The position numbers and the translations under genes are program-made. From Gammaproteobacteria bacterium (GTDB lineage Bacteria; Pseudomonadota; Gammaproteobacteria; Steroidobacterales; Steroidobacteraceae), in the NCBI GenBank assembly GCA_003164785.1, contig PLUE01000016.1, forward strand, positions 124,001 through 188,000: DNA of 64,000 nt. The letters run 5' to 3'. Shown in pieces: positions 26,049 to 61,296 of the stretch (its first letter is position 1; the number at the start of each line of letters is the position of its first letter). The notes beneath the pieces are model-generated. The model worked only from the letters and a program-made list of their open reading frames with translations, was not told where the DNA came from and did not search any database.

Positions 26049-26055
26049 GACGGCC

Positions 26056-32671: not shown

Positions 32672-32714
32672 AATTCCTGTCTGCGGCAGTCGCGCCGTGA
32701 CAGGAATCGACATC

Positions 32715-35952: not shown

Positions 35953-35955
35953 ACC

Positions 35956-36756
35956 ATGCAGCCCGTGGTCATCAACGCAGCCGATGTCAGCCAATGGGTG
36001 GGGAAACTCTGGTGGCCCAGCCTGCGCATCGGCGGATTCATCGCGGCGGCGCCCATCGCGAGCGAAAAAACCATCCCGAATCAGGTCAAAATCGTCCTGA
36101 CGCTGGCGTTGACGGTGTTGCTGGCGCCGCTGGCGCCGGTGCCGAGCTCCCTGTCGATATTCTCCGGTGCGGGAGTTCTGACGGCGGTGCAGGAACTCCT
36201 CATCGGCGTCGCCATCGGCATGGTCATGGAACTTGCCTTCGAGGCGCTGAACTTTGCCGGTCAGAGCATTTCCATGACCATGGGGCTGGGCTTCGCCACC
36301 CTGGTCGATCCGCAGCGTGGCGCGAGCGTGCCCGTTCTCGGTCAGTTGTTCACGATCATGGGTACGCTCACCTACCTTGCCATCAACGGTCATCTGCTGT
36401 TGCTGGGCGCATTGGCGAACAGTTTCCAGACCCTGCCGATCGGCGTGCAAAACATCGACAGGGACTTCCTGCTGTCGGTCGCGATCTGGGGAGGCCGGAT
36501 ATTCGAGACCGGCCTGTTGGTGGCGTTGCCGGCCGTGATCGCGTTGATCATCGTCAACATGGCGCTGGGCGTGGTCACCCGCGCGGCGCCGCAGCTCAAC
36601 CTGTTCGGGATCGGCTTCACCATCACGTTGATGTGCGGATTCCTGGTGCTCCTCATGGGTCTCGACGGCATCATGGTCGGCGTCACCAACCTGATCGACA
36701 CGGCACTGCGTGCCGTCGTCGAACTCGTCGGGACGCCCGCGGCGGGAGCGCACTGA
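35956..36756 (+). CDS. fliR: FliR export gate protein
   Basis: A 266-residue integral membrane protein completing the export gate. About six TM helices; family signatures RIGGFIAAAPI near 24, AFEALNFAGQSISMTMGLGF near 95 and ITLMCGFLVLLMGLDG near 217. The last base of its stop is the first base of the flhB ATG. Confidence 0.94.
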   Translation: MQPVVINAADVSQWVGKLWWPSLRIGGFIAAAPIASEKTIPNQVKIVLTLALTVLLAPLAPVPSSLSIFSGAGVLTAVQELLIGVAIGMVMELAFEALNFAGQSISMTMGLGFATLVDPQRGASVPVLGQLFTIMGTLTYLAINGHLLLLGALANSFQTLPIGVQNIDRDFLLSVAIWGGRIFETGLLVALPAVIALIIVNMALGVVTRAAPQLNLFGIGFTITLMCGFLVLLMGLDGIMVGVTNLIDTALRAVVELVGTPAAGAH

Positions 36757-39967: not shown

Positions 39968-40010
39968 ACCCTAAGTCGCTGGTGAATTGCTTGATTCATG
40001 GAGGTCCTAG

Positions 40011-41339: not shown

Positions 41340-42219
41340 TACACGACTGTCGCGCAGCCAGGCGGAAACGATCGAGGAGATGAACGCTTCCCGTCCCGTG
41401 AAGGTCATCGCCGTCACCGGCGGCAAAGGTGGTGTGGGCAAGACCACGATATCCGCCAATCTGGCGGTATCCATCGCGTCGCAAGGCCGCGACGTCATGC
41501 TGGTCGACGCCGATCTCGGCATGGCCAACGTGGACGTGGTCCTCGGGTTGCATACCCGCTTTCACCTCGGGCACGTGGTCAAGGGCGAGTGCACGTTGGA
41601 GGATGCCATCGTCACCGGTCCGCACGGACTGCAAATCGTACCGGCCGCATCCGGCATCAAACGCATGGCGAATCTGTCCGAAGCCGAGCAGGCCGGCATC
41701 ATTCGTGCCTTCAGTGACCTATATCACCGCGTGGAGGTGCTGGTGGTGGACACCGCGGCCGGTCTGCACGACAGCGTGCTCACTTTCAGCCAGGCCGCGC
41801 ACCATGTGGTCGTGGTGGTGTGCGACGAACCCGCGTCCATCACCGACGCATATGCGCTCATCAAGGTTCTGAGTCGCGAGCATGGTGTGCAGAGGTTTCA
41901 GATCCTCGCGAATCAGACGCGCCGTTCGGGCGAAGGCCCCGACTTGTTCCAGAAAATTTCCAAGGTATGTGACCGGTTTCTCAATGTGCACCTTGAGTTT
42001 GCGGGCTCGATACCGTTCGACGATTATCTGCGGCGCGCAGTGCAGCGGCAGACCGCCGTCGTCGAGGCATATCCGGCCTCGATTTCATCCGTGGCGCTCA
42101 AGAATCTGGCGACGAAGGCCGATAAGTGGTCTGTGCCCCAGGGTGCACGAGGTCACCTGGAGTTCTTCGTTGAACGGATGGTGGGGGCCCGGATCGGTCC
42201 TTCGACGGTATTGCAATGA
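41332..42219 (+). CDS. flhG: FlhG/FleN MinD-like ATPase (flagellar number control)
   Basis: A 295-residue MinD-type ATPase that limits flagellar number and, in Pseudomonas, restrains the sigma-54 activator FleQ. Deviant Walker A VTGGKGGVGKTTISANLAV near residue 29, Walker B VLVVDTAAGLHDSVL near 140, and DADLGMANVDVVLG near 60. A 17-residue N-terminus carries a FleN-type SQAETIEEM segment before the fold. Overlaps flhF by 8 nt and fliA by 4 nt. Confidence 0.93.
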   Translation: MRDTRLSRSQAETIEEMNASRPVKVIAVTGGKGGVGKTTISANLAVSIASQGRDVMLVDADLGMANVDVVLGLHTRFHLGHVVKGECTLEDAIVTGPHGLQIVPAASGIKRMANLSEAEQAGIIRAFSDLYHRVEVLVVDTAAGLHDSVLTFSQAAHHVVVVVCDEPASITDAYALIKVLSREHGVQRFQILANQTRRSGEGPDLFQKISKVCDRFLNVHLEFAGSIPFDDYLRRAVQRQTAVVEAYPASISSVALKNLATKADKWSVPQGARGHLEFFVERMVGARIGPSTVLQ

Positions 42220-42998
42220 GAGCAAGCACACAGTATTCAGATACGCAGAAGCGGAGCCGGAAGCCGATAGCGGACGATGGCGTTCCGGTCGGCGAGGTTC
42301 CGCAACAAGAATTGGTAATCAAACATGCCGATTTGGTCAAACGTATTGCCTATCATTTGGTCAGCCGCATGCCTCCCAACGTGGAAGTCGATGACTTGAT
42401 TCAAGCCGGCATGATCGGCCTTTTGGATGCGGCGAAGCATTACTCCGCCACGAAGGGCGCCAATTTCGAGACCTACGCCGGCATCCGCGTTCGCGGCGCG
42501 ATGCTCGACGAGGTGCGCAAGTCCGATTGGACGCCCCGGTCGGTGCATCGAAACATGCGGGAGATGGCCGACGTCATCCGCAGGATCGAGAATGCCAAGG
42601 GCCAGGACGCGAATCCGACGGACATTGCCCTGGGCCTCGGGGTGACCATCGAGGAATACCACAAGCTGGTCCAGGATGCGGCCAGTTGCCGCTTGTTCAG
42701 CTTCGATCAGCTCGGTGCCGGCGATGATGAATCGAGTCCCGCGGATCATGCGCGCGACGAGGGGCCGGGGCCTTTCGATCACATCGAGGACGCCGGTTTT
42801 CGGGATGCGATGGCGGGCGCGATCAACCTGCTTCCCGAGCGCGAGAAACTCGTGCTCTCGCTCTATTACGATGAGGATATGAATCTGCGCGAGATCGGCG
42901 CGGTTCTCGACGTGTCCGAATCGAGAGTGTGTCAAATTCATGGCCAGGCGTTGGTTCGATTACGCGCGCGGCTTGCGGAGTGGCTAACGCCGGATTGA
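42216..42998 (+). CDS. fliA: FliA flagellar sigma factor (sigma-28)
   Basis: A 260-residue class 3 flagellar sigma factor. Region 2 VKRIAYHLVSRMPPNVEVDD near 36 and LIQAGMIGLLDAAKHY, region 3 (about 100-170) and region 4 LPEREKLVLSLYYDEDMNLR near 205 with the helix-turn-helix VLDVSESRVCQIHGQAL. Expected to recognise the FliA-type promoters seen at 6.5 and 7.1 kb. Its ATG overlaps the flhG stop. Confidence 0.95.
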   Translation: MRASTQYSDTQKRSRKPIADDGVPVGEVPQQELVIKHADLVKRIAYHLVSRMPPNVEVDDLIQAGMIGLLDAAKHYSATKGANFETYAGIRVRGAMLDEVRKSDWTPRSVHRNMREMADVIRRIENAKGQDANPTDIALGLGVTIEEYHKLVQDAASCRLFSFDQLGAGDDESSPADHARDEGPGPFDHIEDAGFRDAMAGAINLLPEREKLVLSLYYDEDMNLREIGAVLDVSESRVCQIHGQALVRLRARLAEWLTPD

Positions 42999-43002
42999 AC
43001 GT

Positions 43003-43746
43003 ATGGATATTCTCAGCATCGTTGGAATCATTCTGGCCTTGATCGCGATCATCGGCGGCGCCATTTTGAAAGGCAGCAGCGCGGGCGCCCTGGTGGGCAG
43101 CGCCGCATTCGTGATCGTGGTGGTCGGCACACTGGCCGCGAGTCTGGTGCAGACGCCGATGGCGACGTTTTTGCGTGCATGGAAAATCGTGGCGTGGGTG
43201 TTCATGCCGCCGGCGAACAATCCGGCCGCGATGATCGAGAAGATCGTCGAGTGGAGCAACATCGCCCGCAAGCAGGGATTGTTGGGATTGGAATCGGCCG
43301 TCGAAGGGGAAAAGGACAATTTTCTCAAGAAGGGTCTGCAGTCGTTGGTCGACGGCGGCGAGCCCGAGGCCATCCGTGCGAGCATGGAGATCGAACTCGA
43401 CACCATGGAGCATTTCGACAACCAGGCGGCCAAGGTCTTCGAGGCCATGGGCATCTATTCTCCCACGCTCGGCATCATCGGCGCGGTCATGGGCCTCATG
43501 GCCGTCATGCAGAACCTGGCCGATCCGTCCAAACTTGGCCACGGCATCGCCGCGGCATTCATCGCGACGATCTACGGCATCGCCTTCGCCAATCTTCTGT
43601 TCCTGCCCATGGGCAACAAGTTGAAGGCGGTGATCCACGGCCAGACCCAGGTCCGCACCATGGTGATCGAGGGCATCATCGCGATCGCGCAGGGCGAGAA
43701 TCCGCGCAATATCGAGTCGAAGCTGCAGGGTTATTTTCACCATTGA
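43003..43746 (+). CDS. motC: MotC-type flagellar stator protein (MotA family)
   Basis: A 247-residue stator subunit with four TM helices. N-terminus MDILSIVGIILALIAIIGGA, then VGTLAASLVQTPMATF near 46, and the MotA/TolQ segment MGIYSPTLGIIGAVMGLMAV near 150. Overall it is closer to the Pseudomonas MotC pattern than to enteric MotA (size 247 rather than about 295). Begins 4 nt after fliA; pairs with motD 12 nt downstream. Confidence 0.92.
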   Translation: MDILSIVGIILALIAIIGGAILKGSSAGALVGSAAFVIVVVGTLAASLVQTPMATFLRAWKIVAWVFMPPANNPAAMIEKIVEWSNIARKQGLLGLESAVEGEKDNFLKKGLQSLVDGGEPEAIRASMEIELDTMEHFDNQAAKVFEAMGIYSPTLGIIGAVMGLMAVMQNLADPSKLGHGIAAAFIATIYGIAFANLLFLPMGNKLKAVIHGQTQVRTMVIEGIIAIAQGENPRNIESKLQGYFHH

Positions 43747-43758
43747 GCCACCGGTAGC

Positions 43759-44763
43759 ATGGCGCGCAAAAAGAAACACGAAGAGCATGTGAACGCGGAG
43801 GCCTGGGCGATTCCCTACGGCGATCTGGTCACGCTGTTGTTCGCGTTGTTCACCGTCATGTACGCGATGTCGTCGGTGAACGAGGGCAAATTTCGGGTGC
43901 TGTCGGACTCGATGATCGCCGCGTTCCATGGCGCGCCGAAGAGCATGCAGCCCGTCAACATCGGCGAGAAGCAGGCTGGCAAGGGTGGCGACAAGCCCCT
44001 GGTCGGCGTGACGCCGACGGCCTTGATGAAGATCAAGGATCAAAGAGCTCCCCAGGGGGGCGACCTCACGCCGCGGGACCCGACCCAGGCCACCGGCTAC
44101 GCGCACGAGGATGCGCCCGGCGCGCTGATCCGCATGGAGCGTCAGGTGCAGAACGCCATGCAGGCGTTGATCGACGCCAAGATGGTCTCGGTGAAACGAG
44201 AGAACATGTGGCTCGAGATCGAGATCAACACCGACATTCTGTTTCCGAGCGGCGCCGGCGAGTTCTCGGCGGCGGCGGAGCCTGTACTCGACAAACTGGC
44301 AGAGGTGTTGAAGCCCTTTCCGAACCCCATCCGGGTGGAGGGCCATACCGACAACCGCCCGATCCGCACCGCCGCCTTCGCGTCCAATTGGGAGTTGTCG
44401 GCGACGCGCGCAGCCAGCGTCGTGCATGAATTCACCAAAGCGGGCATCGATCCGTTGCGCCTCGAAATCGTGGGGTTCGGCGAGTTTCGCCCGCGCGAAT
44501 CGAACGACACCGTCGAAGGACGCAACGCCAATCGGCGCGTCGCCGTGCTGGTTTTGGAGCAAGTCGCGCCGGGGGAAGCCGTGACGGCGATCGCCACGGA
44601 TCAGACGCCGAAGCAAGCCGCGCCAGGGGTGCAGACGGCGGATTCGGGCAGCGCCGCAAATCGGTTACTATGGCGTGTACCGCCTGGCGACATCGAGAAG
44701 ACGGTATTGGTGAAGAGTCCGGAAAAACCTGCAGCGCAGGAGCCGCCGCCGCTGCCGAATTAG
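43759..44763 (+). CDS. motD: MotD-type flagellar stator protein (MotB family)
   Basis: A 334-residue stator subunit with one TM. The TM carries the ion-binding Asp22 in AIPYGDLVTLLFALFTVMYA; Lys/Glu-rich N-terminus (RKKKHEEH). The periplasmic OmpA-like peptidoglycan-binding domain lies near 165-270 with RVEGHTDNRPIRTA. A Pro/Ala-rich C-terminal tail of about 60 residues is unconserved. Last gene of the continuous operon before the IS605-like element end. Confidence 0.92.
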   Translation: MARKKKHEEHVNAEAWAIPYGDLVTLLFALFTVMYAMSSVNEGKFRVLSDSMIAAFHGAPKSMQPVNIGEKQAGKGGDKPLVGVTPTALMKIKDQRAPQGGDLTPRDPTQATGYAHEDAPGALIRMERQVQNAMQALIDAKMVSVKRENMWLEIEINTDILFPSGAGEFSAAAEPVLDKLAEVLKPFPNPIRVEGHTDNRPIRTAAFASNWELSATRAASVVHEFTKAGIDPLRLEIVGFGEFRPRESNDTVEGRNANRRVAVLVLEQVAPGEAVTAIATDQTPKQAAPGVQTADSGSAANRLLWRVPPGDIEKTVLVKSPEKPAAQEPPPLPN

Positions 44764-44774
44764 CGAGGTGCCCC

Positions 44775-44900
44775 TTGATATCCTCCCACGCCCTAAAGGA
44801 CGCGGATTCCTGGATTCAGCGTTCGATGTCCCGAACGGACGGAAGTGTGTTCCGTCTTACCCGACGTACCATCCCAGTTTGCAACCGGCTGGCCGTCGCA
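44775..44900 (-). ncRNA. Orphan IS605-like right end / possible TnpB omegaRNA scaffold
   Basis: On the minus strand the segment ends with the stem-loop CGCGTCC-TTTA-GGGCGTG followed by GGAGGATATCAA, closely recalling the 3' ends of IS200/IS605 elements that template the TnpB omegaRNA. The upstream piece GACATCGAACGCTGAATCC also fits this class. No tnpA or tnpB is present, so it is a remnant end or a lone guide-RNA-like scaffold; the guide would be the sequence after TCAA, which here is the motD 3' flank. The 5' boundary is approximate. Confidence 0.45.
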
Positions 44901-46760: not shown

Positions 46761-48326
46761 TTACGTGACCCGAACCTCGAGCAGCATCGGCACGTCGGCC
46801 GAGAATATCTCGCGCAGCGCCGCGTCGAGGTCTTCGCAGCGCTCGACCCGCATGCTCCTGACGCCCTGCCCCGTGGCCAGCGCACAGAAATCGAGATGCG
46901 GAAGTTTGACGCCGGGCAGCGCGTCGATGGCGAAATGGCGGCCGAATTCCTCGAGCGCGCGATAGCTCGAATTATTGATGACGATGAAGGCGACGGGTAA
47001 TCCGAGTTCCGCGGCGCTCCACAGGCCTTGGATGGAATACATGGCCGAGCCGTCGCCGAGCAAGCCGATGACTTTACGGCCCGGACGCGCCAAGGCGACG
47101 CCGACCGCCGCGGGCAATCCGTGGCCCAAGCCGCCGCTCGCGCAGGTGTGAAAGGTTTCGCGTTCGAGGATGGGCAGATGATCGTGCATGGGTCCGCGGC
47201 TGCTCGGTGCTTCCTCGACGATGATGCTGTCGGCGGGCCGTAGCGCCGCGATCTGCTGCAACAGATAGCAGTCGGTCAGGCGATCGGCCGGCACCTGCGC
47301 CGCGCGCGCAGGCAGAGCCGGCGCCGCACGCGTCTCCCTCGGTTGGGAGGCGAGCAATGCGGCCACGCCGAGCTTCAAATTCGTGACGATGGATGTGCCG
47401 ACGGGGGCCCAGGCCGCGGCGGCCGGGTCGTCGGTGAGCTGCACCAGCGTCGAGCCGGCGGGGATGTGCGGTCCGTGTCCCTCGACGTGATACGTGAACA
47501 CCGGGGCGCCCAGCACCAGGATGAAGTCGGCGCCCTCGAGCAGTTTGACGATCGCCGTGCGGTTCGCCGGCAGGAAGCCGGCGAACAGCGGGTGCCGTTC
47601 GGGAAAGCTGTTGCGCGCCGACATGGGACTGACCCAAACGGCAGCTTGATGTCGTTCGGCGAGGGCGATGGTTTCGTCCCACGCATCGTCTCGTGCGACG
47701 GATGCGCCGACCACGATCACCGGTTTGCGGGCCGCGCCGAGCGCGGCGCCGGCGCGCCGGAGAAGCTCGGGATCGCCGGCCAGGGTTCGGCTCGCGATGC
47801 GGGCCGCCACCGGCAGGCAAAGGCGGTCCCAATCGTCCACCGGGATCGACACCAGGGTGGGACCCCGCGGCGGCTGCATCGCCACGTAGTACGCGCGCGC
47901 CAGGGCGGCAGGGACATCCTCGGCCCGCGCCGGCTCGACGCTCCATTTGATGTAGGGTTTGGGCAACTGCGCGGCCTGCTCGGAATACAAGAACGGCTCG
48001 AACGGCAGGATGGAGCGCGCCTGTTGGCCGGCGGTGATTACGAGCGGTGTCTGGTTCTTGAAAGCGGTGAAAATGCTGCCGAGCGCATGGCCGACGCCCA
48101 CCGCAGAATGCAGGTTGATGAGCGCGGCATCGTTGCGTGCTTGCGCGAAACCGTCGGCCATGGCGACGACCACCGATTCCTGCAATCCCAGCACGTAGCG
48201 GAAATCTTCCGGAAACTCGCGAAACATCGGCAACTCCGTGGAACCAGGGTTGCCGAATATCGTGGTCAGGCCGAACTCCCGCAGCAATGCGTGGACCGCC
48301 TCGCGAACCGGCATCTCGCCGCTCAC
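46761..48326 (-). CDS. mdlC: Benzoylformate decarboxylase-like ThDP enzyme
   Basis: A 521-residue thiamine-diphosphate enzyme closely following Pseudomonas benzoylformate decarboxylase. FGNPGSTELPMFREFPEDFR near 24 (active-site Ser), the ThDP Glu in LQESVVVAMADGFAQA near 47, catalytic His in INLHSAVGVGHALG near 70, and another conserved His in VFTYHVEGHGPHI near 278. ThDP motif LLGDGSAMYSIQGLW near 428. Would decarboxylate an aromatic 2-oxo acid to an aldehyde. GTG start at 48326 overlaps the reductase stop. Confidence 0.82.
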   Translation of the reverse strand: MSGEMPVREAVHALLREFGLTTIFGNPGSTELPMFREFPEDFRYVLGLQESVVVAMADGFAQARNDAALINLHSAVGVGHALGSIFTAFKNQTPLVITAGQQARSILPFEPFLYSEQAAQLPKPYIKWSVEPARAEDVPAALARAYYVAMQPPRGPTLVSIPVDDWDRLCLPVAARIASRTLAGDPELLRRAGAALGAARKPVIVVGASVARDDAWDETIALAERHQAAVWVSPMSARNSFPERHPLFAGFLPANRTAIVKLLEGADFILVLGAPVFTYHVEGHGPHIPAGSTLVQLTDDPAAAAWAPVGTSIVTNLKLGVAALLASQPRETRAAPALPARAAQVPADRLTDCYLLQQIAALRPADSIIVEEAPSSRGPMHDHLPILERETFHTCASGGLGHGLPAAVGVALARPGRKVIGLLGDGSAMYSIQGLWSAAELGLPVAFIVINNSSYRALEEFGRHFAIDALPGVKLPHLDFCALATGQGVRSMRVERCEDLDAALREIFSADVPMLLEVRVT

Positions 48327-49538: not shown

Positions 49539-50300
49539 ATGCTAAAGCTGTATCACGCTGAACCGGTCGCGAACTCCCTGAAATCCCTGATCCCGTTGCA
49601 CGAGAAGGGTCTGGAGTTCGAAAGCATCTACGTGGACCTGCATAAGTTCGAGCAGCATCAGCCGTGGTTCGTTGCGCTGAATCCGGAAGGTCAGGTTCCT
49701 GTCCTGGATCATGATGGCGTGATCATTACGCATACGACGGTCATCAACGAATACCTCGACGACGCGTTTCCCGATTCTCCGCCGCTGCGTCCCGCCGACG
49801 CGGTCGGCAAGGCGCGCATGCGTTATTGGAACAAGTTCGTCGACGAGCATGTGATGAATTATGTTTCCATGTGGGGCTGGCACCGGATGGTCGGCGTCAT
49901 CGCCCGCAGCGTCGACAGCGGCGAATTCGAGAAGCTGCTCGAGCGCATCCCCCTGCATGAGCAGCGCGAGAAATGGCGGACGGCACGCTCCGGCTTCAGT
50001 GAAGCGGACCTCGCGAACGCCACGCGAAAAATCGAAGTGGCCGCGGCCAAGGTGGAGAAGCAACTGGGCGAATTCCCGTGGATCGCGGGCGATACGTTCA
50101 GCCTTGCCGACGCGAATTTCTTCAGCCATTGCGGAATGATGCTCGAACGCATGTTTCCCGCGATCGGCAACCAGCAGTCGACTCCCCGGCTTCTCGACTG
50201 GGTTGCGCGGATGCGCGCCCGCCCCGGTGTGGCCAAGGCGCTTGCGGGCCCGGACAAGACCAATCCAGCGTTGCGCACGTTCACGGGCCACGTTCACTAA
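49539..50300 (+). CDS. LigF-like glutathione S-transferase (beta-etherase candidate)
   Basis: A 253-residue GST. N-terminal thioredoxin fold: LKLYHAEPVANSLKSLIPLH (the N-S-L-K block of LigF), EKGLEFESIYVDLHKFEQHQ near 22, NPEGQVPVLDHDG near 50 and VINEYLDDAFPDSPPLRPAD near 67, then the helical domain with MRYWNKFVDEHVM near 96. This follows the Sphingobium LigF pattern, a glutathione-dependent enzyme that splits beta-aryl ethers after oxidation of the alpha-carbinol. First gene of a three-gene operon with GMC and SDR enzymes. Substrate to be tested; other GST roles are possible. Confidence 0.8.
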   Translation: MLKLYHAEPVANSLKSLIPLHEKGLEFESIYVDLHKFEQHQPWFVALNPEGQVPVLDHDGVIITHTTVINEYLDDAFPDSPPLRPADAVGKARMRYWNKFVDEHVMNYVSMWGWHRMVGVIARSVDSGEFEKLLERIPLHEQREKWRTARSGFSEADLANATRKIEVAAAKVEKQLGEFPWIAGDTFSLADANFFSHCGMMLERMFPAIGNQQSTPRLLDWVARMRARPGVAKALAGPDKTNPALRTFTGHVH

Positions 50301-50327
50301 AGACGGGTTTCAAGAAGGAGTCGCTCG

Positions 50328-51962
50328 GTGGCCAATGCGTCGATCAAGAAATTTGATTACGTCATCGTCGGTGCGGGTTCCGCGGGATGCGTTCTCGCCA
50401 ATCGCCTGACGCAGGAGGCGAATACGGTGCTCCTGCTCGAAGCAGGGGGGCGCGCGACCGGGCTTTTCAAAGACATGCCGATGGCATTTCCGAAATACGT
50501 ACTGCGGCGGGATCTGAATTGGAATTTCGTGAGCGAGCCGGAGCCCCATTGCAACGGCAGGCGGATCGACATCCCTCGCGGCAAGGGACTCGGCGGTTCG
50601 TCGATGATCAACGGCATGGTCTATGCGCGCGGTCACCGCAGGGACTACGATCAATGGGCGGAGCAGGGGATGGCCGGATGGGGCTACGCCGACGTGCTGC
50701 CGTATTTCCGCAAGTCCGAGAAGAGCTGGCTGGGCGACGGCCCGTACCATGGGGACTCCGGCGAACTGCATGTCGTGGTCCCCGAGACCAACATGCTGTA
50801 TGACGAGATTCGCGCCGCCACCATTGCCGCCGGCTATCCGGCGACGCAGGACTATCACGGCGAGGAAACGGAAGGATTTCAGCGCAGCGAGATGACCATC
50901 GTCGGCGGCCGGCGCGCGAACAACGCGCGCATTTTCTTGAAGCCGGCGATGGGCCGCGGCAATCTGACGGTCGAAACGAGAGCGCTCGCCAGCCGCATCC
51001 GTATCGAGGCAGGGCGCGCGGTGGGCGTGGACTATTTGCAGGGTGGCCAAGCCTTCACGGCCATGGCCAACCGTGAAGTCATCCTCGCCGGCGGGGTGTA
51101 TGGATCGCCGCAGTTGCTCATGCTGTCCGGCGTCGGCCCCGCAGATCATCTTCGTACCCAGGGCATCAAGCCGCTCCTCGATTTACCGGGAGTCGGCAAG
51201 AATCTCGTCGAACATCCCTTCCTGTTCATAGGGTGGAACCTGCGCCACGGCGCGTTTCGCAGCGAGTTGCGCGTCGATCGCGCGACGACGTGGGTCATGC
51301 AGTGGGGTCTGCGAGGCAAGGGCTTGTTCGCCACCAACGGCGCTGCCGGCAATTTGTTCATTCGGACGGATCCGCGCCTGGACCGGCCCGACATGCAATA
51401 CACCTGCATGTCGGGTGAGATCAGTGCGCGCGAGCTATGGTTCCCGTTCTTCGGCAAGAAGCCGGCACACAGTCTCGGCGTCGGCATTTCGATGATCAAG
51501 CAGGACAGCCGGGGAGAGGTCACGCTGCGCTCCCCTGATCCCCAGGTTGCGCCCCGCATCTTGTTCAATCTGTTCAAGGAGCGATCCGATATGGAGCGCG
51601 CCATTCGCGGTTTGAAGGCCATCCGCGACATCTATCATCGTGAGCCGTTGCGCGATTTGATCACCAGCGAAATCGTGCCCGGCGAGGCCGTGGCCTCGGA
51701 CGCCGATCTCGAGAAGTTCATCCGCGCGACCGGCGCGATCACGCAGCACGCGGTGGGCACCTGCAAGATGGGGATCGACACGGATCCGCACGCCGTGGTC
51801 GACGGGTCCTTGAGGGTGCGCGGTCTGGAGGGGCTGCGTGTCATCGATGCGTCGATCATGCCGGACGTGCCCGGGGGCAATACGAATGCTCCCGCGATCA
51901 TGATCGCGGAGAAAGGCGCCGACATCATCCGCGGGCGCAGCTTGCCCCGCGCAACGGTCTGA
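50328..51962 (+). CDS. GMC-family FAD oxidoreductase (HpvZ-like role possible)
   Basis: A 544-residue flavin oxidoreductase. FAD motif DYVIVGAGSAGCVLANRLTQ near 10, GMC signature RGKGLGGSSMINGMVYARG near 84, second signature AGGVYGSPQLLMLSGVGP near 250, and catalytic His-Asn region HAVGTCKMG near 470 with NTNAPAIMIAEKGAD near 515. No signal peptide. In Sphingobium, the GMC enzyme HpvZ oxidises the alcohol that LigF releases; position next to the LigF-like gene makes the same role plausible here. An alcohol/choline dehydrogenase role is the alternative. Confidence 0.88.
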   Translation: MANASIKKFDYVIVGAGSAGCVLANRLTQEANTVLLLEAGGRATGLFKDMPMAFPKYVLRRDLNWNFVSEPEPHCNGRRIDIPRGKGLGGSSMINGMVYARGHRRDYDQWAEQGMAGWGYADVLPYFRKSEKSWLGDGPYHGDSGELHVVVPETNMLYDEIRAATIAAGYPATQDYHGEETEGFQRSEMTIVGGRRANNARIFLKPAMGRGNLTVETRALASRIRIEAGRAVGVDYLQGGQAFTAMANREVILAGGVYGSPQLLMLSGVGPADHLRTQGIKPLLDLPGVGKNLVEHPFLFIGWNLRHGAFRSELRVDRATTWVMQWGLRGKGLFATNGAAGNLFIRTDPRLDRPDMQYTCMSGEISARELWFPFFGKKPAHSLGVGISMIKQDSRGEVTLRSPDPQVAPRILFNLFKERSDMERAIRGLKAIRDIYHREPLRDLITSEIVPGEAVASDADLEKFIRATGAITQHAVGTCKMGIDTDPHAVVDGSLRVRGLEGLRVIDASIMPDVPGGNTNAPAIMIAEKGADIIRGRSLPRATV

Positions 51963-51988
51963 ATCATCAATCCAAGGGCTGGAGCGCA

Positions 51989-52876
51989 ATGAAGAATCTC
52001 AAAGGCAAGGTCGCGTTCGTCACGGGCGGTAGCAGCGGCATCGGACTGGGCATCGTCAAGGTGCTCGCCGCGGAAGGCATGAAGGTGGCGTTCAGCTACC
52101 GCCGCCAGGACCACTTGGATGAGACCATGGCCTATTTCCGTGACAGGCCCGACCAGCAGGTGCATCCGGTCAAGGTCGACGTGACGGATCGCCCGGGTCT
52201 GGCGGCTGCCAAGCTCGAGATCGAGGGCGCCTTGGGTCCGGTGCAGGTGCTGGTCAACAATGCGGGGGTCGGCATTCAGGGTCCCATCGAGCAGGCCAGC
52301 TTCAGCGATTGGGATTGGATCATGAGCGTGAATGTGGGCGGTGTGGTCAATGGCGTGGTCACGTTTCTGCCCGGAATGATCGCGAGTGGGAAGGAGGCCC
52401 ACATCGTCAACGTGTCCTCCATGGGTGGCATCGCGGCATTGGGTTCGGCGGGTTTGTACACGACGACGAAATTCGCCGTGGTGGGTCTGTCGGAGGCTCT
52501 GCGGACGGACCTGATCGGCCGCAACGTCGGCGTTTCGGTCTACTGCCCCGGTACGGTCAAGTCCAACATCGGCGAGGGCGGCAAGATGCGCCACGAACAA
52601 TACAAGGATACGGGCTACACGCCGCGCGCAGCGCCGGCGCCGGAGGAGGTGCACTTCATGAACCTGGCCATGGACGCCGTGGAGGCGGGCGGCCATGTCT
52701 TGAGAGGCATACAGGAGAATCAACTCTTCATCATCAGCCACCCCGAGTTCCGGGATGTGCTGCGCACACGTCATGCGAAGATCGAGGCCTCGATCAGCCG
52801 CGAGCCGATCAATGAGGAACGGGCGGAATCGGTCCGTTTCATCCTGTCGAACGAGATTTACACCCGCGACGCGTGA
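51989..52876 (+). CDS. LigD/LigL-like C-alpha dehydrogenase (SDR)
   Basis: A 295-residue SDR. NAD loop VAFVTGGSSGIGLGIVKVLA near 8, NNAGVGIQGPIEQ near 92, catalytic Ser and Tyr-x3-Lys (NVSSMGGIAALGSAGLYTTTK) near 147-165. The stretch DWDWIMSVNVGGVVNGVVTF near 107 and GVSVYCPGTVKSNIGEGG near 182 follow the Sphingobium LigD/LigL pattern, enzymes that oxidise the alpha-hydroxyl of beta-aryl ethers and so prepare them for LigF-type cleavage. Follows the GMC gene by 26 nt. Confidence 0.82.
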   Translation: MKNLKGKVAFVTGGSSGIGLGIVKVLAAEGMKVAFSYRRQDHLDETMAYFRDRPDQQVHPVKVDVTDRPGLAAAKLEIEGALGPVQVLVNNAGVGIQGPIEQASFSDWDWIMSVNVGGVVNGVVTFLPGMIASGKEAHIVNVSSMGGIAALGSAGLYTTTKFAVVGLSEALRTDLIGRNVGVSVYCPGTVKSNIGEGGKMRHEQYKDTGYTPRAAPAPEEVHFMNLAMDAVEAGGHVLRGIQENQLFIISHPEFRDVLRTRHAKIEASISREPINEERAESVRFILSNEIYTRDA

Positions 52877-55541: not shown

Positions 55542-55952
55542 CTACGTCGGGTCGCGCACGTTGATTTCAACCTTGATGCCGTTCGGATCATTCAAAAAGA
55601 GCTGCCTCAGTCCGATCGTTGGAATCTCGTTCACTTGGAATTTGATGCCGCGGGCGGTGAGGGTGGCCATGATGTCCTTGCTGTCGACACCGTTGAATGC
55701 GATGTGGTCGACGGGACCTGTCCCCGGGGCGCGCGTCGACACGTCGATCCCGAGCGCCTCCGAATAGGTTCGATAGCTCCGCCATTCGGCGATGTGGATG
55801 CATGGAATCTCGCCGACATAGACCCAGTAGCCCGGGAAGCCCAGCGGCGGCCGCGGCCCCACGCGCATGCCGAGCGCGAGCGCATAGAAGTCGCGCGTGC
55901 CCTCGAGATCATCGGTGAGCACCAGATAGTGCTCGAGCTGAGTCAGTGGCAT
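55542..55952 (-). CDS. VOC (glyoxalase/extradiol dioxygenase-like) protein
   Basis: A 136-residue VOC protein with paired beta-alpha-beta-beta-beta modules: LEHYLVLTDDLEGTRDFYAL near 6 and VDHIAFNGVDSKDIMATL near 81; possible metal His/Glu residues (H8, H82, E129 region) are in place. Substrate unknown; may be a dioxygenase or isomerase of the neighbouring catabolic pathway. Convergent with the HisKA_3 gene, 31 nt from the isomerase gene on the same strand. Confidence 0.85.
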   Translation of the reverse strand: MPLTQLEHYLVLTDDLEGTRDFYALALGMRVGPRPPLGFPGYWVYVGEIPCIHIAEWRSYRTYSEALGIDVSTRAPGTGPVDHIAFNGVDSKDIMATLTARGIKFQVNEIPTIGLRQLFLNDPNGIKVEINVRDPT

Positions 55953-55983
55953 GGTGCCGCCGCAGGATTGGCGCGCGCCGCTC

Positions 55984-56838
55984 TCATGTCGGGAATTGCG
56001 CGCGGGTGGTCGCGAAGGCGCGCGGCGCGATCTGATCCGGCGGCAATTGGCGCAGATCCTCGTTCAGAACCTCGATTCCCCACGGCCCTCGGTAGCCGGC
56101 CTCCAGCATCGTGGCGACGAAGCCGCGCACGTCGAATTCGCCTTCCCCACAAAGCCGCCGGTGATTGATCGTGTCCTCAAACAGGCTCCACGGGGCCGTG
56201 AAAGTGCCGTCGTTGATCTCGATGCCGCCGATATATTGCATGGGAAAACGCGCGGCCGCTTCGTAGGAGATGCCGAGCTTCACGAGGTGCCAGAGGTCGA
56301 ACACGATGCCGCCGTTCGCGGCGTCCACCGCGGTGACCAGATCGAGCGCGTCCTCGAGCGTGTTGATCCGTGCAAAAGGCATGAGCTCGAAAAGCACGCG
56401 GGTGCCATGTTCGCGTGCATCGAGGCAGAGTGCGGCAAATCCGTCGATGAGCTCGGGCATTTCCACGGGGCTGTTGAACAGATCGCCGACCTTGACGTGG
56501 CGTGCGCCGAGCACCCTCGCCGCGTCGAACAGCCTGCGCCTGGAGGCATCGCTCGCCGCGCGTCGTTCGCCGGGCTCGAGCCACCAATCGCTCAGGAACT
56601 CGATTTCGACGTGCTTGATGCCGTTATCATCGAGAATGTGGCGCATATCGTCGAGCGACAGGGTGCGCAGCGTCTGGTCCAGGTCGGCATGCCAGATGCC
56701 GAAGCCTTTGAATCCGGCGCGTGCCGCCGCCACCACGCGGTCCGCGAACGGGGACGAACTGTGTTCATGGTCCGAATGCGGAGCCGCGCCCGACGCCATC
56801 GTCCAATACGAGGCCAATAGATCGATTTGCTGGGTCAT
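55984..56838 (-). CDS. Sugar-phosphate isomerase/epimerase-type TIM barrel protein
   Basis: A 284-residue AP-endonuclease-2-like TIM barrel. Metal-ligand motifs: GFKGFGIWHADLDQTLR near 40, HVKVGDLFNSPVEMPELIDG near 110, GTRVLFELMPFARINTLEDA near 142, IVFDLWHLVKLGISYEA near 176 and GIEVLNEDLRQLPP near 262. Divalent-metal isomerases/epimerases or dehydratases share this fold; substrate unknown. Same strand as the MFS gene with a 10-nt gap, so it probably handles the transported compound. Confidence 0.82.
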   Translation of the reverse strand: MTQQIDLLASYWTMASGAAPHSDHEHSSSPFADRVVAAARAGFKGFGIWHADLDQTLRTLSLDDMRHILDDNGIKHVEIEFLSDWWLEPGERRAASDASRRRLFDAARVLGARHVKVGDLFNSPVEMPELIDGFAALCLDAREHGTRVLFELMPFARINTLEDALDLVTAVDAANGGIVFDLWHLVKLGISYEAAARFPMQYIGGIEINDGTFTAPWSLFEDTINHRRLCGEGEFDVRGFVATMLEAGYRGPWGIEVLNEDLRQLPPDQIAPRAFATTRAQFPT

Positions 56839-56848
56839 GGATGTCCTC

Positions 56849-58072
56849 TCAGCCGGCCAACGCAGGCGCGGTTCGTTGTGCGAGCCGCGCAGGTGCGGTC
56901 TCTGTCAGGTAAAGCGCGAGGCAGGCGGCGATCAACGCACATCCGGCCTCCATATAAAGGGGTACCCTCAAGCTGTAGAGATCGGCGGCCCATCCCGCGA
57001 TGGCGGGGGCGCTCACGCCCCCCAATACCTCCCCCAGCCCCATGACGATGCCCAGCGCGGTCGCGACGTAGCGCGCCGGAATCGTTTCGGAGGGTATGGT
57101 TCCCATCATCAGCGGCATCGTGCCGCTGGCCGACCAGCCGACGAACACCAGCGCGGCGAGTGCGTACGGCGAGCCGGTGAAATAGAGCGCGGCCAGCGGC
57201 ACGAGCACCCCCACCAGATTGAAGGCGATGACCACGGGACGTCGACCGAGGCGGTCCGACAGACCGGGCACGATGAAACTGAAGAATGCCGCCGAGAGCC
57301 CGAGCACGCTCATGAGGAGGCTCATTTGCTGGGCCGAGTAATGTTTCACCTGGATGTAGTATAACGGCAGAAACGACCACCCGAGAACCATCCATGCGAC
57401 CATCACGATGCTCATGAGTATGCACAGCCACATGTTGCGATGCTTGAGCATGTCGGCGGCCCGGATGCGGGAATCGGCGGTCTTGACCATCGCCCCGAGG
57501 GTGTGAACCTTGGGCTCCTTGACGTATTTGACGATGAGCGCCGCCATCAGCAGACCCGGAATTCCGGCAATGAAAAATGCGGTGCGCCACGTGTAAAACG
57601 ACGCGATCGCCACCAATGCCAGCGGTGCGACAAACGAACCCAGCAGGTTGCTGCCAAAATTTTGCATGACTCCCATGTTGTAGCCGCGGCGCCCGTCGGC
57701 GGATTCGAACGCCACCAATGACTGGGACACCGGCAGGATCGGGCCTTCCGCGACTCCCATGAGCAGCCTCGACAGGAACAGGGTCAGGAACGAGACCGCG
57801 ACTCCCGAGAGGAACGAGCACACGGAAAACGCCACCACCGCGGCCACGAGAATCTTCTTGCGATAGGCGGTGCGATCCGCGAGCGCCCCACCGAGAAAGC
57901 CGGCGATCGCCCATGTCAAGGACAGCGCCGAGGCGATGAGACCGATCTGGCCATTGGAGAAGCGCAAGTCGGCGGTGATGAACGGCATGAGGAAATTGAC
58001 CGCGTTGCGATCGAAAAACACGAAGCCGAACGTGATCCCCAACACCCAGATGAGGCGGGTTTCATATTTCAT
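56849..58072 (-). CDS. MFS transporter
   Basis: A 407-residue transporter with 12 predicted helices. LIWVLGITFGFVFFDRNAVN near residue 6 and NGQIGLIASALSLTWAIAGF near 39, loop motif GGALADRTAYRKK near 60, and GLSDRLGRRPVVIAF near 225. Best fits the anion:cation symporter (organic acid) branch, e.g. for aromatic acids. The ATG at 58072 is preferred over a start at 58090; GGGGAAAG lies upstream. First gene of an operon with the isomerase and perhaps the VOC gene. Confidence 0.85.
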   Translation of the reverse strand: MKYETRLIWVLGITFGFVFFDRNAVNFLMPFITADLRFSNGQIGLIASALSLTWAIAGFLGGALADRTAYRKKILVAAVVAFSVCSFLSGVAVSFLTLFLSRLLMGVAEGPILPVSQSLVAFESADGRRGYNMGVMQNFGSNLLGSFVAPLALVAIASFYTWRTAFFIAGIPGLLMAALIVKYVKEPKVHTLGAMVKTADSRIRAADMLKHRNMWLCILMSIVMVAWMVLGWSFLPLYYIQVKHYSAQQMSLLMSVLGLSAAFFSFIVPGLSDRLGRRPVVIAFNLVGVLVPLAALYFTGSPYALAALVFVGWSASGTMPLMMGTIPSETIPARYVATALGIVMGLGEVLGGVSAPAIAGWAADLYSLRVPLYMEAGCALIAACLALYLTETAPARLAQRTAPALAG

Positions 58073-58280
58073 TTTTTTTGCTTTCCCCAAGCCCGGTGAG
58101 CCCTCTCGACTGTACTAGACGAAACTGCCGGACGCATGCGCTCTACGTGGATGCAAATTTCTCTTTGAGTCGAGAAGTACAGTGGGGCGAGAGAGACGCT
58201 GCGTCAAACAAAGATTGCAGTGCAACGTGTCGCGGACCTGCAACGAGAATGATGACGGCAACGGCGATGGGCAAACGAAT

Positions 58281-58470: not shown

Positions 58471-59451
58471 ATGAAGCCGAGCGTCGAACAACGTATTTGG
58501 ATGTATGAAGCCATGTATCGCAGCCGGCGTCTGGACGACGCCGTGCTCGCGGCCTACATGGAAGGGAAAACGCCGGTGTTCAACATGGGCAAGGGTCCGT
58601 TGCCGGGAGAAATGCACCAGTCCTTCGGGCAGGAACCGTGTGCGGTCGGCGTGTGCGCGCACCTAGGCAAGGACGATGCGGTGGGCGCCGGCCATCGGCC
58701 GCATCACGTCGCGGTGGCGAGGGGTGTGCACCTCAATCGAATGGTGGCCGAACTGTTCGGCAAAAAGACCGGACTGTCCGGCGGACGCGGCGGCCACATG
58801 CATTTGTACGACGCGGAGGTGAACTTCTTCTCCAGCGGCATCATCGCCGAGGGCATGGGGCCGGGCGCCGGCATGGCGCTCGCCCGCAAAATGCAGGGCA
58901 AGCCCGGCATCGCCGTGGCCTTCATCGGCGATGGCGCCGCCAATCAAGGGGCGTTCCACGAGGTGCTGAACATGGTCGGGCTGTGGAAGCTTCCCTTCAT
59001 CTGTGTGATCGAAGACAACAAGTACGGCGTGTCGGTCCACAAGAAGGACTCGACCGCGATCGATCGCAACTCCGATCGCGCCCCGGCTTACGCGCTCGCG
59101 GGCGAATACGTGCCGGGCAACGATCCCGACCTCATTTTCGAGGCGGCCGGTCGCGCCGTGGAGCGTGCGCGCAGCGGCCTGGGCGGTACGATTCTCGAGC
59201 TGGAAACCGAGCGATTGCACGGGCATTTCATCGGCGACAGCGGAGCTTATCGTCCGGAGCCCGAACGCAAGGCGATGCAGGACCCCGTGCCGACATACCG
59301 CCAGCGGCTGTTAGCCGAGAACGTCATCTCGGCGGCGGCGATGACGGCCCTCGAGGCAACCGTGCAGCAACAAGTCGATGAAGCAATGAAGTTCGGCCGC
59401 GACAGCGCGTATCCGGATGCAACCGAGGCGCTGCAGCGCCTGTACGCCTGA
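58471..59451 (+). CDS. 2-oxoacid dehydrogenase E1 alpha subunit (AcoA/PDH-like)
   Basis: A 326-residue ThDP enzyme subunit. Phosphate-loop-like FGKKTGLSGGRGGHMHLYDA near 98, the ThDP motif IAVAFIGDGAANQGAFHEVL near 149 and FICVIEDNKYGVSVHKK near 178. Closest to acetoin-dehydrogenase or pyruvate/2-oxoacid dehydrogenase E1alpha. Pairs with the E1beta gene 14 nt downstream. No signal. GGAG precedes the start. The substrate is not indicated by the sequence. Confidence 0.88.
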   Translation: MKPSVEQRIWMYEAMYRSRRLDDAVLAAYMEGKTPVFNMGKGPLPGEMHQSFGQEPCAVGVCAHLGKDDAVGAGHRPHHVAVARGVHLNRMVAELFGKKTGLSGGRGGHMHLYDAEVNFFSSGIIAEGMGPGAGMALARKMQGKPGIAVAFIGDGAANQGAFHEVLNMVGLWKLPFICVIEDNKYGVSVHKKDSTAIDRNSDRAPAYALAGEYVPGNDPDLIFEAAGRAVERARSGLGGTILELETERLHGHFIGDSGAYRPEPERKAMQDPVPTYRQRLLAENVISAAAMTALEATVQQQVDEAMKFGRDSAYPDATEALQRLYA

Positions 59452-59465
59452 CGGAGAATTCGACA

Positions 59466-60515
59466 ATGGCCCAACCTTTACCCGCTGCCGCTCCCGGCTC
59501 CGAACGCACGCTCACCATGGCGCGCGCCGGACGCGAGGCCGTGTTCAGCGAGATGCGCAAGAATCCGAACATGTTCGTCATCGGCGAAGACGTCGCCAAA
59601 CTGGGCGGCGTGTTCGGCACCACGGTCGGCATGGCCGAGGAGTTCGGCGACGCCCGCGTCATCGACACCCCGATTTCCGAGACCGGTTTCATCGGCATTG
59701 CCACGGGCGCGGCGATGGCGGGCATGCGTCCCGTCGTCGAGATCGCGTTCGTCGACTTCATCGGCGTGTGCTTCAATCAGATCTACAACTTCGCCGCGAA
59801 GACCCACTACATGTCGGGCGGCCAGTTCAAGGTGCCGTTGACCTTCATGATCGGCTACGGCGGCGGCTACAATGATGCCGCGCAGCATTCCCAAGTGTTG
59901 TTCGCGACGTTGGGTCACGTGCCCGGGATCAAAATCGTCACGCCGGCAGATGCCTACGACGCCAAAGGATTGATGGCTTCGTGCCTGCAGGACGACAACG
60001 TCACGATCTGGATGGTGCACAAACGTTTGTGGGGTTTGGGCTGGCTCGGCTTCCCGTTGCCCAAGGCTCTGGCGACGGTACCGGAGCACGACTACACGAT
60101 CCCCTTCGGGCAATCGCGAATCTGGCGCGAAGGCAGCGACGTGACCATCGTCGGCCTGGGGCTGACCGTGCACAACGCGATGCAGGCCGCGGAACAGCTG
60201 GCCGGCGAAGGCATCTCCGCCGAAGTGCTCGACTTGCGCAGCGTCGTGCCGCTGGATCGCGACGGGATATTCAAATCGGTGGCGAAGACCGGACGCCTCG
60301 TGGTGGCAGATGAGGACTACATGAGCTTTGGGGTGACCTCCGAAGTTCTGGCGGTGGTGGCCGAGCGTGATCCGTCGGTGCTCAAATCGCCCGCGGTTCG
60401 AGTGGCCTATCCCGATGTCCCGGTGCCGTTCTCCCGGCCGATGGAGGATTTCTGCCTGCCCAATGTGGAGCGGATCGTCACCGCGGTGAAGGCGACCATG
60501 AAGGCAAGGAAGTGA
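59466..60515 (+). CDS. 2-oxoacid dehydrogenase E1 beta subunit (AcoB/PDH-like)
   Basis: A 349-residue transketolase-fold subunit. FVIGEDVAKLGGVFGTTVGM near 36, DTPISETGFIGIATGAAMAG near 63, KIVTPADAYDAKGLMASCLQ near 157 and the C-terminal PVPFSRPMEDFCLPNVERIV. An N-terminal Ala/Pro extension (about 15 residues) precedes the fold. The stop overlaps the lipoyl protein start (GTGA). With E1alpha forms the heterotetramer that decarboxylates a 2-oxo acid. Confidence 0.88.
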   Translation: MAQPLPAAAPGSERTLTMARAGREAVFSEMRKNPNMFVIGEDVAKLGGVFGTTVGMAEEFGDARVIDTPISETGFIGIATGAAMAGMRPVVEIAFVDFIGVCFNQIYNFAAKTHYMSGGQFKVPLTFMIGYGGGYNDAAQHSQVLFATLGHVPGIKIVTPADAYDAKGLMASCLQDDNVTIWMVHKRLWGLGWLGFPLPKALATVPEHDYTIPFGQSRIWREGSDVTIVGLGLTVHNAMQAAEQLAGEGISAEVLDLRSVVPLDRDGIFKSVAKTGRLVVADEDYMSFGVTSEVLAVVAERDPSVLKSPAVRVAYPDVPVPFSRPMEDFCLPNVERIVTAVKATMKARK

Positions 60516-60751: not shown

Positions 60752-61296
60752 TGTCGGAGGCGGCCAACCTGTCGGAGGCGGCAGTGGCTCTGGGCCGCCG
60801 ACGATTCGTGCAGGTTGTCACCGCGGTGTTGAGCGGTGTGCTGACGGGGCTCGATCGTGCGTGGGCGGTCGAGCTGCATTCGTTGTCGCCGGATCAGTCG
60901 AGCACGCTGCTCGCGATGATTCATACCATCGCGCCGCATGACGGGTTGGACGACGCGGCCTACGCACTCGTCGCGGCGTCGCTGGACGCCGACGCCGCTT
61001 CGTCTGCCGAGAGTCGACGGGTGCTGACCGAGGGACTCGCCGGTCTCGGCGTCGAATTCGCGCACGATCCGGAGCCGGTCCGTGTGCGCAGACTCCAGGC
61101 GGTCGAGCCTTCGCCATTCTTTCAGTCGGTGCGGATCAAGACACTGCTGGTGCTCTACAACAATCCCATTGCGTGGACGCATTTCGGCTACGAGGGCGAG
61201 GCGTTCTCGAAGGGTGGTTATTTGTTGCGGGGATTCAATGACCTGAAGTGGCTGCCCGACGTTCCGATCGCGGCGGCTGGTCGCATGCCGGTATGA
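60751..61296 (+). CDS. Gluconate 2-dehydrogenase subunit 3-like Tat protein
   Basis: A 181-residue protein with a twin-arginine signal (LGRRRFVQVVTAVLSGVLTG near residue 14). The body matches the small subunit of membrane FAD dehydrogenases: LSPDQSSTLLAMIHTIAPHD near 44 and FFQSVRIKTLLVLYNNPIAW near 123. The partner flavin subunit would be the GMC protein next door. The usual cytochrome c subunit is absent. Starts overlapping the lipoyl gene stop (TAATG). Confidence 0.75.
   Translation: MSEAANLSEAAVALGRRRFVQVVTAVLSGVLTGLDRAWAVELHSLSPDQSSTLLAMIHTIAPHDGLDDAAYALVAASLDADAASSAESRRVLTEGLAGLGVEFAHDPEPVRVRRLQAVEPSPFFQSVRIKTLLVLYNNPIAWTHFGYEGEAFSKGGYLLRGFNDLKWLPDVPIAAAGRMPV

What the first reader, a model, noticed from the sequence alone, without database searches (positions are those of the whole stretch)
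49539..52876. Candidate lignin beta-aryl-ether operon: LigF-like GST, GMC oxidoreductase, LigD/LigL-like SDR
Three adjacent plus-strand genes follow the logic of the sphingomonad route: an SDR that oxidises the alpha-carbinol, a glutathione-dependent beta-etherase, and a GMC enzyme that can oxidise the released primary alcohol (HpvZ-type). The GST and SDR match LigF and LigD/LigL in diagnostic stretches, not only in fold. Finding such a set in a gammaproteobacterium with a polar flagellum would be unusual, and the compact GST-GMC-SDR order is not one I know as a described operon.
Basis: partly seen in the sequence, partly recalled or inferred. Interest (0 to 1): 0.85.

Follow-up and report, generated by a model that had tools for sequence, protein, structure and literature searches.

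The report
LigF2/DesD-like GST beside GMC–SDR pair
A gammaproteobacterium carries a three-gene set that probably helps break down lignin fragments: one enzyme belongs to a known lignin-enzyme class with two reported jobs, and its two oxidoreductase partners look different from the textbook enzymes.

Summary
The three genes are real, tightly spaced, co-directional ORFs. The GST is not a general detoxifier. It falls in the LigF2 clade (100/99) and is 72% identical to the Novosphingobium subterraneum counterpart of Saro_2865. That protein is reported both as beta(S)-etherase NaLigF2 and as DesD, a subunit of the syringate-route isomerase DesCD. The SDR belongs to the C-alpha-dehydrogenase superfamily but forms its own 100/100 clade. 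It has Ser-Tyr-Arg-Arg where LigL has its NAD-binding Asp36, so it is probably NADP(H)-dependent. The GMC is no closer to HpvY than five other GMCs of this genome. GMC–SDR is the conserved unit; linkage of the GST to it was seen only in one GST subclade. The same contig carries BaeA/BaeB-like GSTs, a Nu-class GST, an Asp36-bearing SDR pair, a lignostilbene dioxygenase and LigM. The lignin-catabolic setting is well supported; the substrate is not. Beta(S)-etherase is most likely and DesD-type isomerase the main rival. A gammaproteobacterial LigF was already in print.

The parts
49539..50300 (+). GST, LigF2/DesD class (Saro_2865 type), 253 aa; active-site Asn12-Ser13 correspond to LigF Asn13-Ser14 of PMC6369299
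50328..51962 (+). GMC flavoprotein oxidoreductase (choline-dehydrogenase-like), 544 aa; conserved partner of the SDR
51989..52876 (+). SDR of the C-alpha-dehydrogenase superfamily, own clade, predicted NADP(H)-preferring (S36-Y37-R38-R39), 295 aa
48323..49339 (-). Zinc-type alcohol dehydrogenase / quinone-oxidoreductase-like gene, divergent from the GST; a homologue lies within 1.6 kb of the LigF2/DesD gene in 10 of 80 related loci; membership in the unit is uncertain

Best explanation
The three genes are one transcription-unit-like part of a lignin-aromatics catabolic island in a gammaproteobacterium. The GST most likely makes glutathione attack the beta carbon of an alpha-keto beta-aryl ether of S configuration, releasing a phenol and a GS-phenylpropanone. 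It would complement the BaeA/BaeB-like pair (beta-R) and the Nu-class GST (glutathione lyase) encoded 33-45 kb downstream. The GMC flavoprotein most likely oxidises an alcohol of the same C3 side chain, for example the gamma-CH2OH of the released hydroxypropiovanillone. The SDR most likely interconverts a C-alpha alcohol and ketone with NADP(H), while the NAD-type LigD/L/O step is done by the SDR pair at C34:208.0-209.9 kb. Shown here by sequence: class of the GST, its catalytic Asn-Ser, its clade, the distinct SDR clade and cofactor motif, the GMC-SDR linkage, and the pathway homologues on the contig. Inferred: every substrate, the cofactor preference, and co-transcription.
For: GST inside the LigF2 clade, 100/99, sister to LigF1 (94/85). 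The Asn-Ser pair is kept; PMC6369299 reports it in the LigF homologues shown to have etherase activity and in BaeA. NaLigF2 is among the enzymes that paper lists as cleaving beta(S)-MPHPV. Own contig C34: overlapping BaeA/BaeB-like genes (BaeA 60% to N. subterraneum BaeA and in the BaeA clade 100/95), Nu-class GST with Thr-Pro-Asn, Asp36-bearing SDR pair, lignostilbene dioxygenase above the NCBIfam cut-off (848 against 800), LigM above cut-off (812 against 580; 0 of 14 control genomes over cut-off). None of the 13 own GSTs placed in the tree (of 14 found with PF02798) falls in the LigF1 clade, so this GST is the best beta(S)-etherase candidate. A family member, G177, has SDR-SDR-LigF2-amidohydrolase-GSTNu-BaeB-BaeA in about 6 kb.
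Against: Saro_2865 is also DesD: PMC8612281 says desD loss abolished growth on syringate and DesCD made OMA in vitro (passage). 61 of 80 related loci carry LigM or DesC in the stretch held, so most of the clade sits in syringate/vanillate contexts. The GST-GMC-SDR arrangement is rare: of 120 listed GST relatives, 5 share a longest-contig length with a listed GMC relative, and only 3 of these are long contigs from matching sources. G117 has GMC-SDR but no LigF-class GST at E<=1e-60, with 9 of 17 candidates scored. The BaeB candidate is only 30% identical to BaeB and lacks its Ala-Ser. Substrates were not testable.
Confidence: 0.5

Rival explanations
1. The GST is a DesD: a glutathione-dependent isomerase subunit that turns the 3-O-methylgallate ring-fission product CHMOD towards 4-oxalomesaconate in syringate catabolism; etherase activity is a side activity.
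For: Table 1 of PMC12997858 equates Saro_2865 with desD and SARO_RS14525 with desC. N. subterraneum L051 has GST, alpha/beta hydrolase, PurU-like gene, LigM, MetF-like gene in a row. The finding's GST is 72% identical to that GST. LigM in 52 of 80 loci and DesC within 1.6 kb in 38 of 80. Own genome has two LigM-family genes over cut-off and three LigB-type class III extradiol dioxygenase genes over the NF009903 cut-off.
Against: The finding's GST lies in a subclade outside the 76-row group that holds all 61 DesC/LigM-context rows (branch 86/93). No DesC homologue on contig C34 or in the held pieces of C53, C15 and C70; the rest of the genome was not searched for DesC. A gallate dioxygenase over its equivalog cut-off (492 against 412) offers a route without DesCD.
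Confidence: 0.3
2. The GMC and SDR form their own module and the GST is a neighbour. The SDR is an NADPH-dependent C-alpha ketone reductase (LdpB/LdpC-like in logic) that inverts stereochemistry of diarylpropane or other dimers before stilbene formation and cleavage by the on-contig lignostilbene dioxygenase. Not exclusive of the other readings of the GST.
For: GMC-SDR adjacency read in own genome, G009 and G117 and L009. 28 of 120 listed SDR relatives share a longest-contig length with a listed GMC relative; one of these, 2467 bases, is too short to hold both genes. SYRR motif invariant in 22 of 22 aligned rows, the finding included. LdpB/LdpC are SDR-family C-alpha reductases. Lignostilbene dioxygenase at C34:190348-191808.
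Against: No LdpB/LdpC sequence was available to compare. LdpA (NTF2 family) was not searched for. In the GST subclade OWN, P0002, P0003, P0006, L009 the GST does keep company with GMC or SDR.
Confidence: 0.3
3. General detoxification GST, choline/alcohol dehydrogenase and housekeeping SDR with no lignin role.
For: GMC and SDR families are large and promiscuous; the GMC's best NCBIfam hits are choline dehydrogenase models below their cut-offs.
Against: GST placement, lignin-catabolic genes on the same contig, patchy occurrence (GST-class matches in 6 of 60 relatives, and 8 of 296 in the order).
Confidence: 0.07

Closest known systems
NaLigF2 / DesD (Saro_2865), Novosphingobium aromaticivorans
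   Same: Same clade (100/99); 72% identity to the N. subterraneum counterpart; same Asn-Ser; same His-Thr in place of LigF Glu65-Ser66
   Different: Subclade outside the group with DesC/LigM neighbours; sits with GMC and SDR instead of DesC.
LigF (SYK-6) and LigF1 homologues
   Same: Best PDB hit; 46% identity over 236 aligned positions; active-site Asn-Ser
   Different: LigF1 is a separate sister clade; GSH gamma-glutamyl motif Glu-Ser is His-Thr here
LigD / LigL / LigO C-alpha-dehydrogenases
   Same: SDR superfamily, Asn-Ser-Tyr-Lys tetrad and Pro188 kept; 36-46% identity
   Different: Separate 100/100 clade; Tyr instead of Asp36; predicted NADP(H)
LdpB / LdpC C-alpha ketone reductases (SYK-6)
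   Same: Same broad SDR family, and a reductase role would fit the cofactor motif
   Different: No sequence comparison was possible
HpvZ / HpvY (beta-HPV oxidases)
   Same: GMC family; 42.8% identity to HpvY over 549 aligned positions
   Different: Not specific: five other own GMCs are 41.6-44.6% identical to HpvY
BaeAB heterodimeric beta(R)-etherase
   Same: Homologues on the same contig at C34:218.0-219.6 kb as overlapping BaeA-then-BaeB genes
   Different: Not part of the three-gene unit; BaeB partner is divergent (30%)

Membership tests
LigF2/DesD GST class | Falls in the LigF2 clade, apart from LigF1, BaeA and BaeB | tested here: met
   (100/99)
LigF2/DesD GST class | Active-site Asn and Ser of LigF/BaeA | tested here: met
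   residues from PMC6369299
LigF beta-etherase | Cleaves (beta-S)-MPHPV with GSH | not testable with these tools
   needs assay
DesD (DesCD isomerase) | Adjacent or present DesC partner | tested here: inconclusive
   absent from contig C34 and held pieces of C53, C15, C70; rest of genome not searched
DesD (DesCD isomerase) | Within the subclade that has DesC/LigM neighbours | tested here: not met
   all 61 such rows in a 76-row group (86/93) that excludes it; many loci are short contigs
LigD/L/O C-alpha-dehydrogenase | Nests with one of the characterised SYK-6 enzymes | tested here: not met
   own clade 100/100; backbone unresolved
LigD/L/O C-alpha-dehydrogenase | NAD-binding Asp36 of LigL at the end of beta2 | tested here: not met
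   Tyr in the finding; 10 Tyr and 1 Trp of 11 clade rows; S36-Y37-R38-R39 in 22 of 22
LigD/L/O C-alpha-dehydrogenase | Asn-Ser-Tyr-Lys tetrad | tested here: met
HpvZ/HpvY oxidase | Stands out among own GMCs by likeness to HpvY | tested here: not met
   42.8%, against 44.6% for C70:472; 6 of 17 own GMCs validly compared. HpvZ itself was not available
SYK-6-type beta-aryl-ether pathway in the genome | C-alpha-DH, etherases of both stereo types, GS lyase, O-demethylase, ring-fission dioxygenase | tested here: met
   by homologues only:
Known GST-GMC-SDR operon | Described in print | tested here: inconclusive
   no description seen in the listings of paper searches of an open-licence library; Voss 2020 not held

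The most novel reading that the evidence does not exclude
A branch of LigF2/DesD-like GSTs in Gammaproteobacteria has left the syringate operon and become tied to a GMC flavoprotein and an NADP(H)-type C-alpha oxidoreductase. Together they form a compact route for lignin dimers (ether cleavage with redox editing or stereo-inversion of the side chain) that has not been described in sphingomonads.
Probability: 0.2. Interest if true: 0.7.

Novelty: new variant of a known kind. Interest (0 to 1): 0.45.

Why it matters
Bacterial beta-aryl-ether catabolism is characterised mainly in sphingomonads. This genome and some of its family members show lignin-dimer gene sets in Gammaproteobacteria, with parts divided differently. 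The GST subclade also poses a clean test of which of the two reported jobs of Saro_2865, etherase or CHMOD isomerase, is older and which is derived. An SDR with a switched cofactor motif beside it would tell whether the redox steps run in the usual direction.

Tried and rejected
General detoxification: rejected by the GST tree and context. GST as a BaeA or BaeB: rejected, those are separate clades and separate own genes. SDR as LigD/LigL: downgraded by tree and cofactor motif. GMC as HpvZ: downgraded, not specific. Transfer signal from base composition: GC of the region (about 0.63) is like the 30-64 kb part of the window (0.60-0.68), so no signal. Two AlphaFold models came out weak (GST mean pLDDT 63.6; SDR 52.6) and were neither searched nor used as evidence. 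Rfam scan of the window: no match. LigE was not tested, because no LigE sequence was fetched. LdpA/LdpB/LdpC and VceA were not tested.

Limits and dropped rows: one own GST (C38:110.7) and one G009 GST with an in-frame stop were left out of the GST tree; one of ten non-own SDR loci (L132) was left out of the SDR tree. One search read six minus-strand loci in the wrong strand; redid them. In one search four GMC loci (C15:136, C15:85, C9:22, C15:25) gave a wrong ORF and are not counted, and seven own GMCs were not tried. The relatives, order and class searches score only part of the candidates in many genomes, so misses are possible. Contig-length coincidence is a proxy for linkage, and the short coincident lengths (1869 and 3785 for GST–GMC; 2081, 2810 and 1609 for GST–SDR; 2467 for SDR–GMC) are chance or unresolved. 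Many related loci are short contigs, so neighbour counts are lower bounds.
Full report
What is there. The window is G000:C34:124001-188000 of a 5.85-Mb, 75-contig genome (99.7% complete, 6.45% contaminated). GST 49539-50300, GMC 50328-51962 and SDR 51989-52876 are co-directional, 27 and 26 bp apart, with coding-like third-position GC. Pfam places them as GST, GMC and SDR; none of the NCBIfam families shown for them is over its cut-off.

Which GST. LigF (4xt0) is the best PDB hit by a wide margin (E 2e-57 against 5e-19). Kontur et al. (PMC6369299; abstract, sections 6, 8, 10, 11 and part 1 of the Discussion read) divide this class into LigF1, LigF2 (Saro_2865, about 40% to LigF1), BaeA and BaeB. 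I anchored these names in N. subterraneum DSM 12447. SYK-6 LigF finds three proteins there at E<=1e-15, at 64%, 44% and 39%. The last two lie on one contig in the order reported for Saro_2873, 2872 and 2865, and the BaeA and BaeB candidates carry Asn14-Ser15 and Ala13-Ser14 at exactly the published positions. In a 50-row tree the finding's GST is inside LigF2 (100/99), with LigF1 as sister (94/85). It keeps Asn-Ser and shares with N. subterraneum LigF2 a His-Thr in place of LigF Glu65-Ser66 (LigF contacts from PMC4777856, passages).

Two names for one protein. A 2026 review (PMC12997858, sections 3 and 4 and passages) lists Saro_2865 as desD and SARO_RS14525 as desC. PMC8612281 (passages) states that NaLigF2 is a beta-etherase, that the same gene product was proposed as DesD, that desD loss abolished syringate growth with CHMOD accumulation, and that DesCD makes OMA in vitro. 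PMC12314914 (passages) calls DesC and DesD CHMOD methylesterase and counts desD as not essential for syringate catabolism, which is at odds with that. PMC8091115 (passages) gives the deletion strains. N. subterraneum L051 shows GST, alpha/beta hydrolase, PurU-like, LigM and MetF-like genes in a row. So class membership alone cannot decide between etherase and isomerase.

Subclade and context. Across the 80 related loci kept of the 127 found, LigM is in 52, DesC within 1.6 kb in 38, BaeA in 30 and a homologue of the window's ADH within 1.6 kb in 10. In a 95-row tree all 61 rows with DesC or LigM in the held stretch fall in one 76-row group (86/93). The finding's GST sits outside it, with P0001, P0002, P0003, P0006 and L009 (85/90). 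None of the six locus rows outside the 76-row group has that context. L009 has GMC–SDR within about 6 kb of the GST, on the other strand. P0002, P0003 and P0006 share longest-contig lengths of 17-46 kb with listed GMC relatives, and the first two also with listed SDR relatives. This is a proxy, not a reading of those contigs.

The SDR. Its four best PDB hits include the three SYK-6 C-alpha-dehydrogenase sequences, but in a 61-row tree it forms its own clade (100/100, 11 rows), and the backbone among the LigD-, LigL- and LigO-type rows is unresolved. PMC4858972 (passages) gives LigL Asp36 as the contact to the adenosine ribose 2'- and 3'-hydroxyls and N115-S144-Y158-K162 as the tetrad. The tetrad is kept. 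Asp36 is Tyr in 10 and Trp in 1 of the 11 clade rows, and S36-Y37-R38-R39 is invariant in 22 of 22 aligned rows. Loss of this Asp with an Arg next to it is, from general knowledge of SDRs, a sign of NADP(H) use. The own pair at C34:208039-208959 and 208956-209852 keeps Asp; the own C53 pair has Tyr. LigL Asp95 and Arg222 are absent here, but they are also absent from the LigD and LigO sequences, so that test says nothing.

The GMC. It is 42.8% identical to HpvY (SARO_RS19130; HpvY function from PMC11837543, passages). Five other own GMCs are 41.6-44.6% (6 of 17 own GMCs validly compared). GMC–SDR adjacency was read in four of five genomes with this SDR type (own; L009; G009 and G117; not in G023). 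Of 120 listed SDR relatives, 28 share a longest-contig length with a listed GMC relative (27 without a 2467-base one too short for both genes). Of 120 listed GST relatives, 5 do, of which 3 are long contigs from matching sources.

The island. Downstream on C34: lignostilbene-alpha,beta-dioxygenase equivalog 190348-191808 (848 against 800), GMCs and aldehyde dehydrogenases, PQQ-alcohol dehydrogenase 204943-207129 (51% to one in the N. subterraneum cluster), Nu-class GST 207193-207867 (the Thr-Pro-Asn motif is described in PMC5892560, passages), the SDR pair, a BaeA gene 218785-219552 overlapping a BaeB-like gene 218007-218792, and LigM 229309-230685 (812 against 580). Elsewhere: a second LigM-family gene on C70 (634 against 580), LigB-type class III extradiol dioxygenase genes over the NF009903 cut-off on C70, C75 and C15, and a gallate dioxygenase on C47. 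Family member G177 has a compact SDR-SDR-LigF2-amidohydrolase-GSTNu-BaeB-BaeA cluster. G264 (L165) adds a LigB-type dioxygenase, OMA tautomerase and LigM, each over cut-off. BaeA-upstream-of-BaeB with overlap is the published arrangement.

Distribution. GST-class matches at E<=1e-60: 6 of 60 relatives, 8 of 296 in the order, 2 of 369 in the class sample, own genome included each time. SDR of the finding's type: G000, G009 and G023 among 60, G000 and G117 among 296. Three of these four genomes have a LigF-class GST in those searches; for G117 none was found, with 9 of 17 candidates scored.

Literature. PMC8312274 (passages) used a LigF from a Gammaproteobacterium, OGT78215.1, taken from Voss et al. 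2020, which was not held. PMC8027834 (passages) reports ligF1 among lignin-induced transcripts. PMC9296663 (passages) reports a 13C-lignin-labelled Steroidobacteraceae genome; 'beta-etherase' and 'glutathione' do not occur in its text. PMC5863372 (passages) reports LigF orthologues at 26-93% identity in a consortium and GST-domain hits in alpha- and betaproteobacterial bins. PMC9241852 (passages) reports a weak LigF match in Sodalis (45.8 bits). PMC10866074 (passages) notes that hpvZ is lacking in MBES04. I saw no description of a GST–GMC–SDR operon in the listings of searches.

Verdict. The beta-ether assignment is probable, not shown. The SDR and GMC labels were too specific, and the dual DesD/LigF2 identity of the GST class is the key point that was missed.

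Noticed in passing
window 46761-48326 (-): Benzoylformate decarboxylase equivalog (NF005485, 782 against cut-off 493) between an SDR and the ADH just upstream of the finding; a possible aromatic alpha-keto-acid step.
   Followed up: no
window 55542-58090 (-): VOC protein, xylose-isomerase-like TIM barrel and MFS transporter, kept in the same order in genus member G009 (L168) at 66-76% identity, with GMC2 and lignostilbene dioxygenase homologues nearby.
   Followed up: partly
window 58471-60515 (+): Two genes resembling 2-oxoacid dehydrogenase E1 alpha and beta (recognised by eye), followed by a small subunit-like gene and a second GMC (61248-62861).
   Followed up: no
window about 11800-28300: Run of ketosynthase-, acyl-carrier-, acyltransferase- and methyltransferase-like ORFs that looks like an aryl-polyene-type lipid cluster (by eye).
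   Followed up: no
window about 32700-44800: Flagellar and motor gene block directly upstream of the catabolic region (by eye).
   Followed up: no
G000:C15:184675-185659 (L098, L102, L198): A second tandem GST pair: one BaeA-like (50% to own BaeA) and one with Ala-Thr at the BaeB-like active-site positions, whose tree position is unsure.
   Followed up: partly
L117, L118, L123 (G026, G023): A further LigF-like GST clade outside LigF1 and LigF2 (98/96) with no characterised member among the rows.
   Followed up: no
L165 (same contig as L079), G264: A gammaproteobacterial MAG contig of 19.6 kb with LigB-type dioxygenase, OMA tautomerase, BaeA, LigF2, LigM and LigD/L-like SDR genes together; the BaeB-like gene and the Nu-class GST were read on L079.
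   Followed up: partly
L116 (G009:C71:16589-17338): A 55%-identical GST with one in-frame TGA, perhaps a decaying copy.
   Followed up: no
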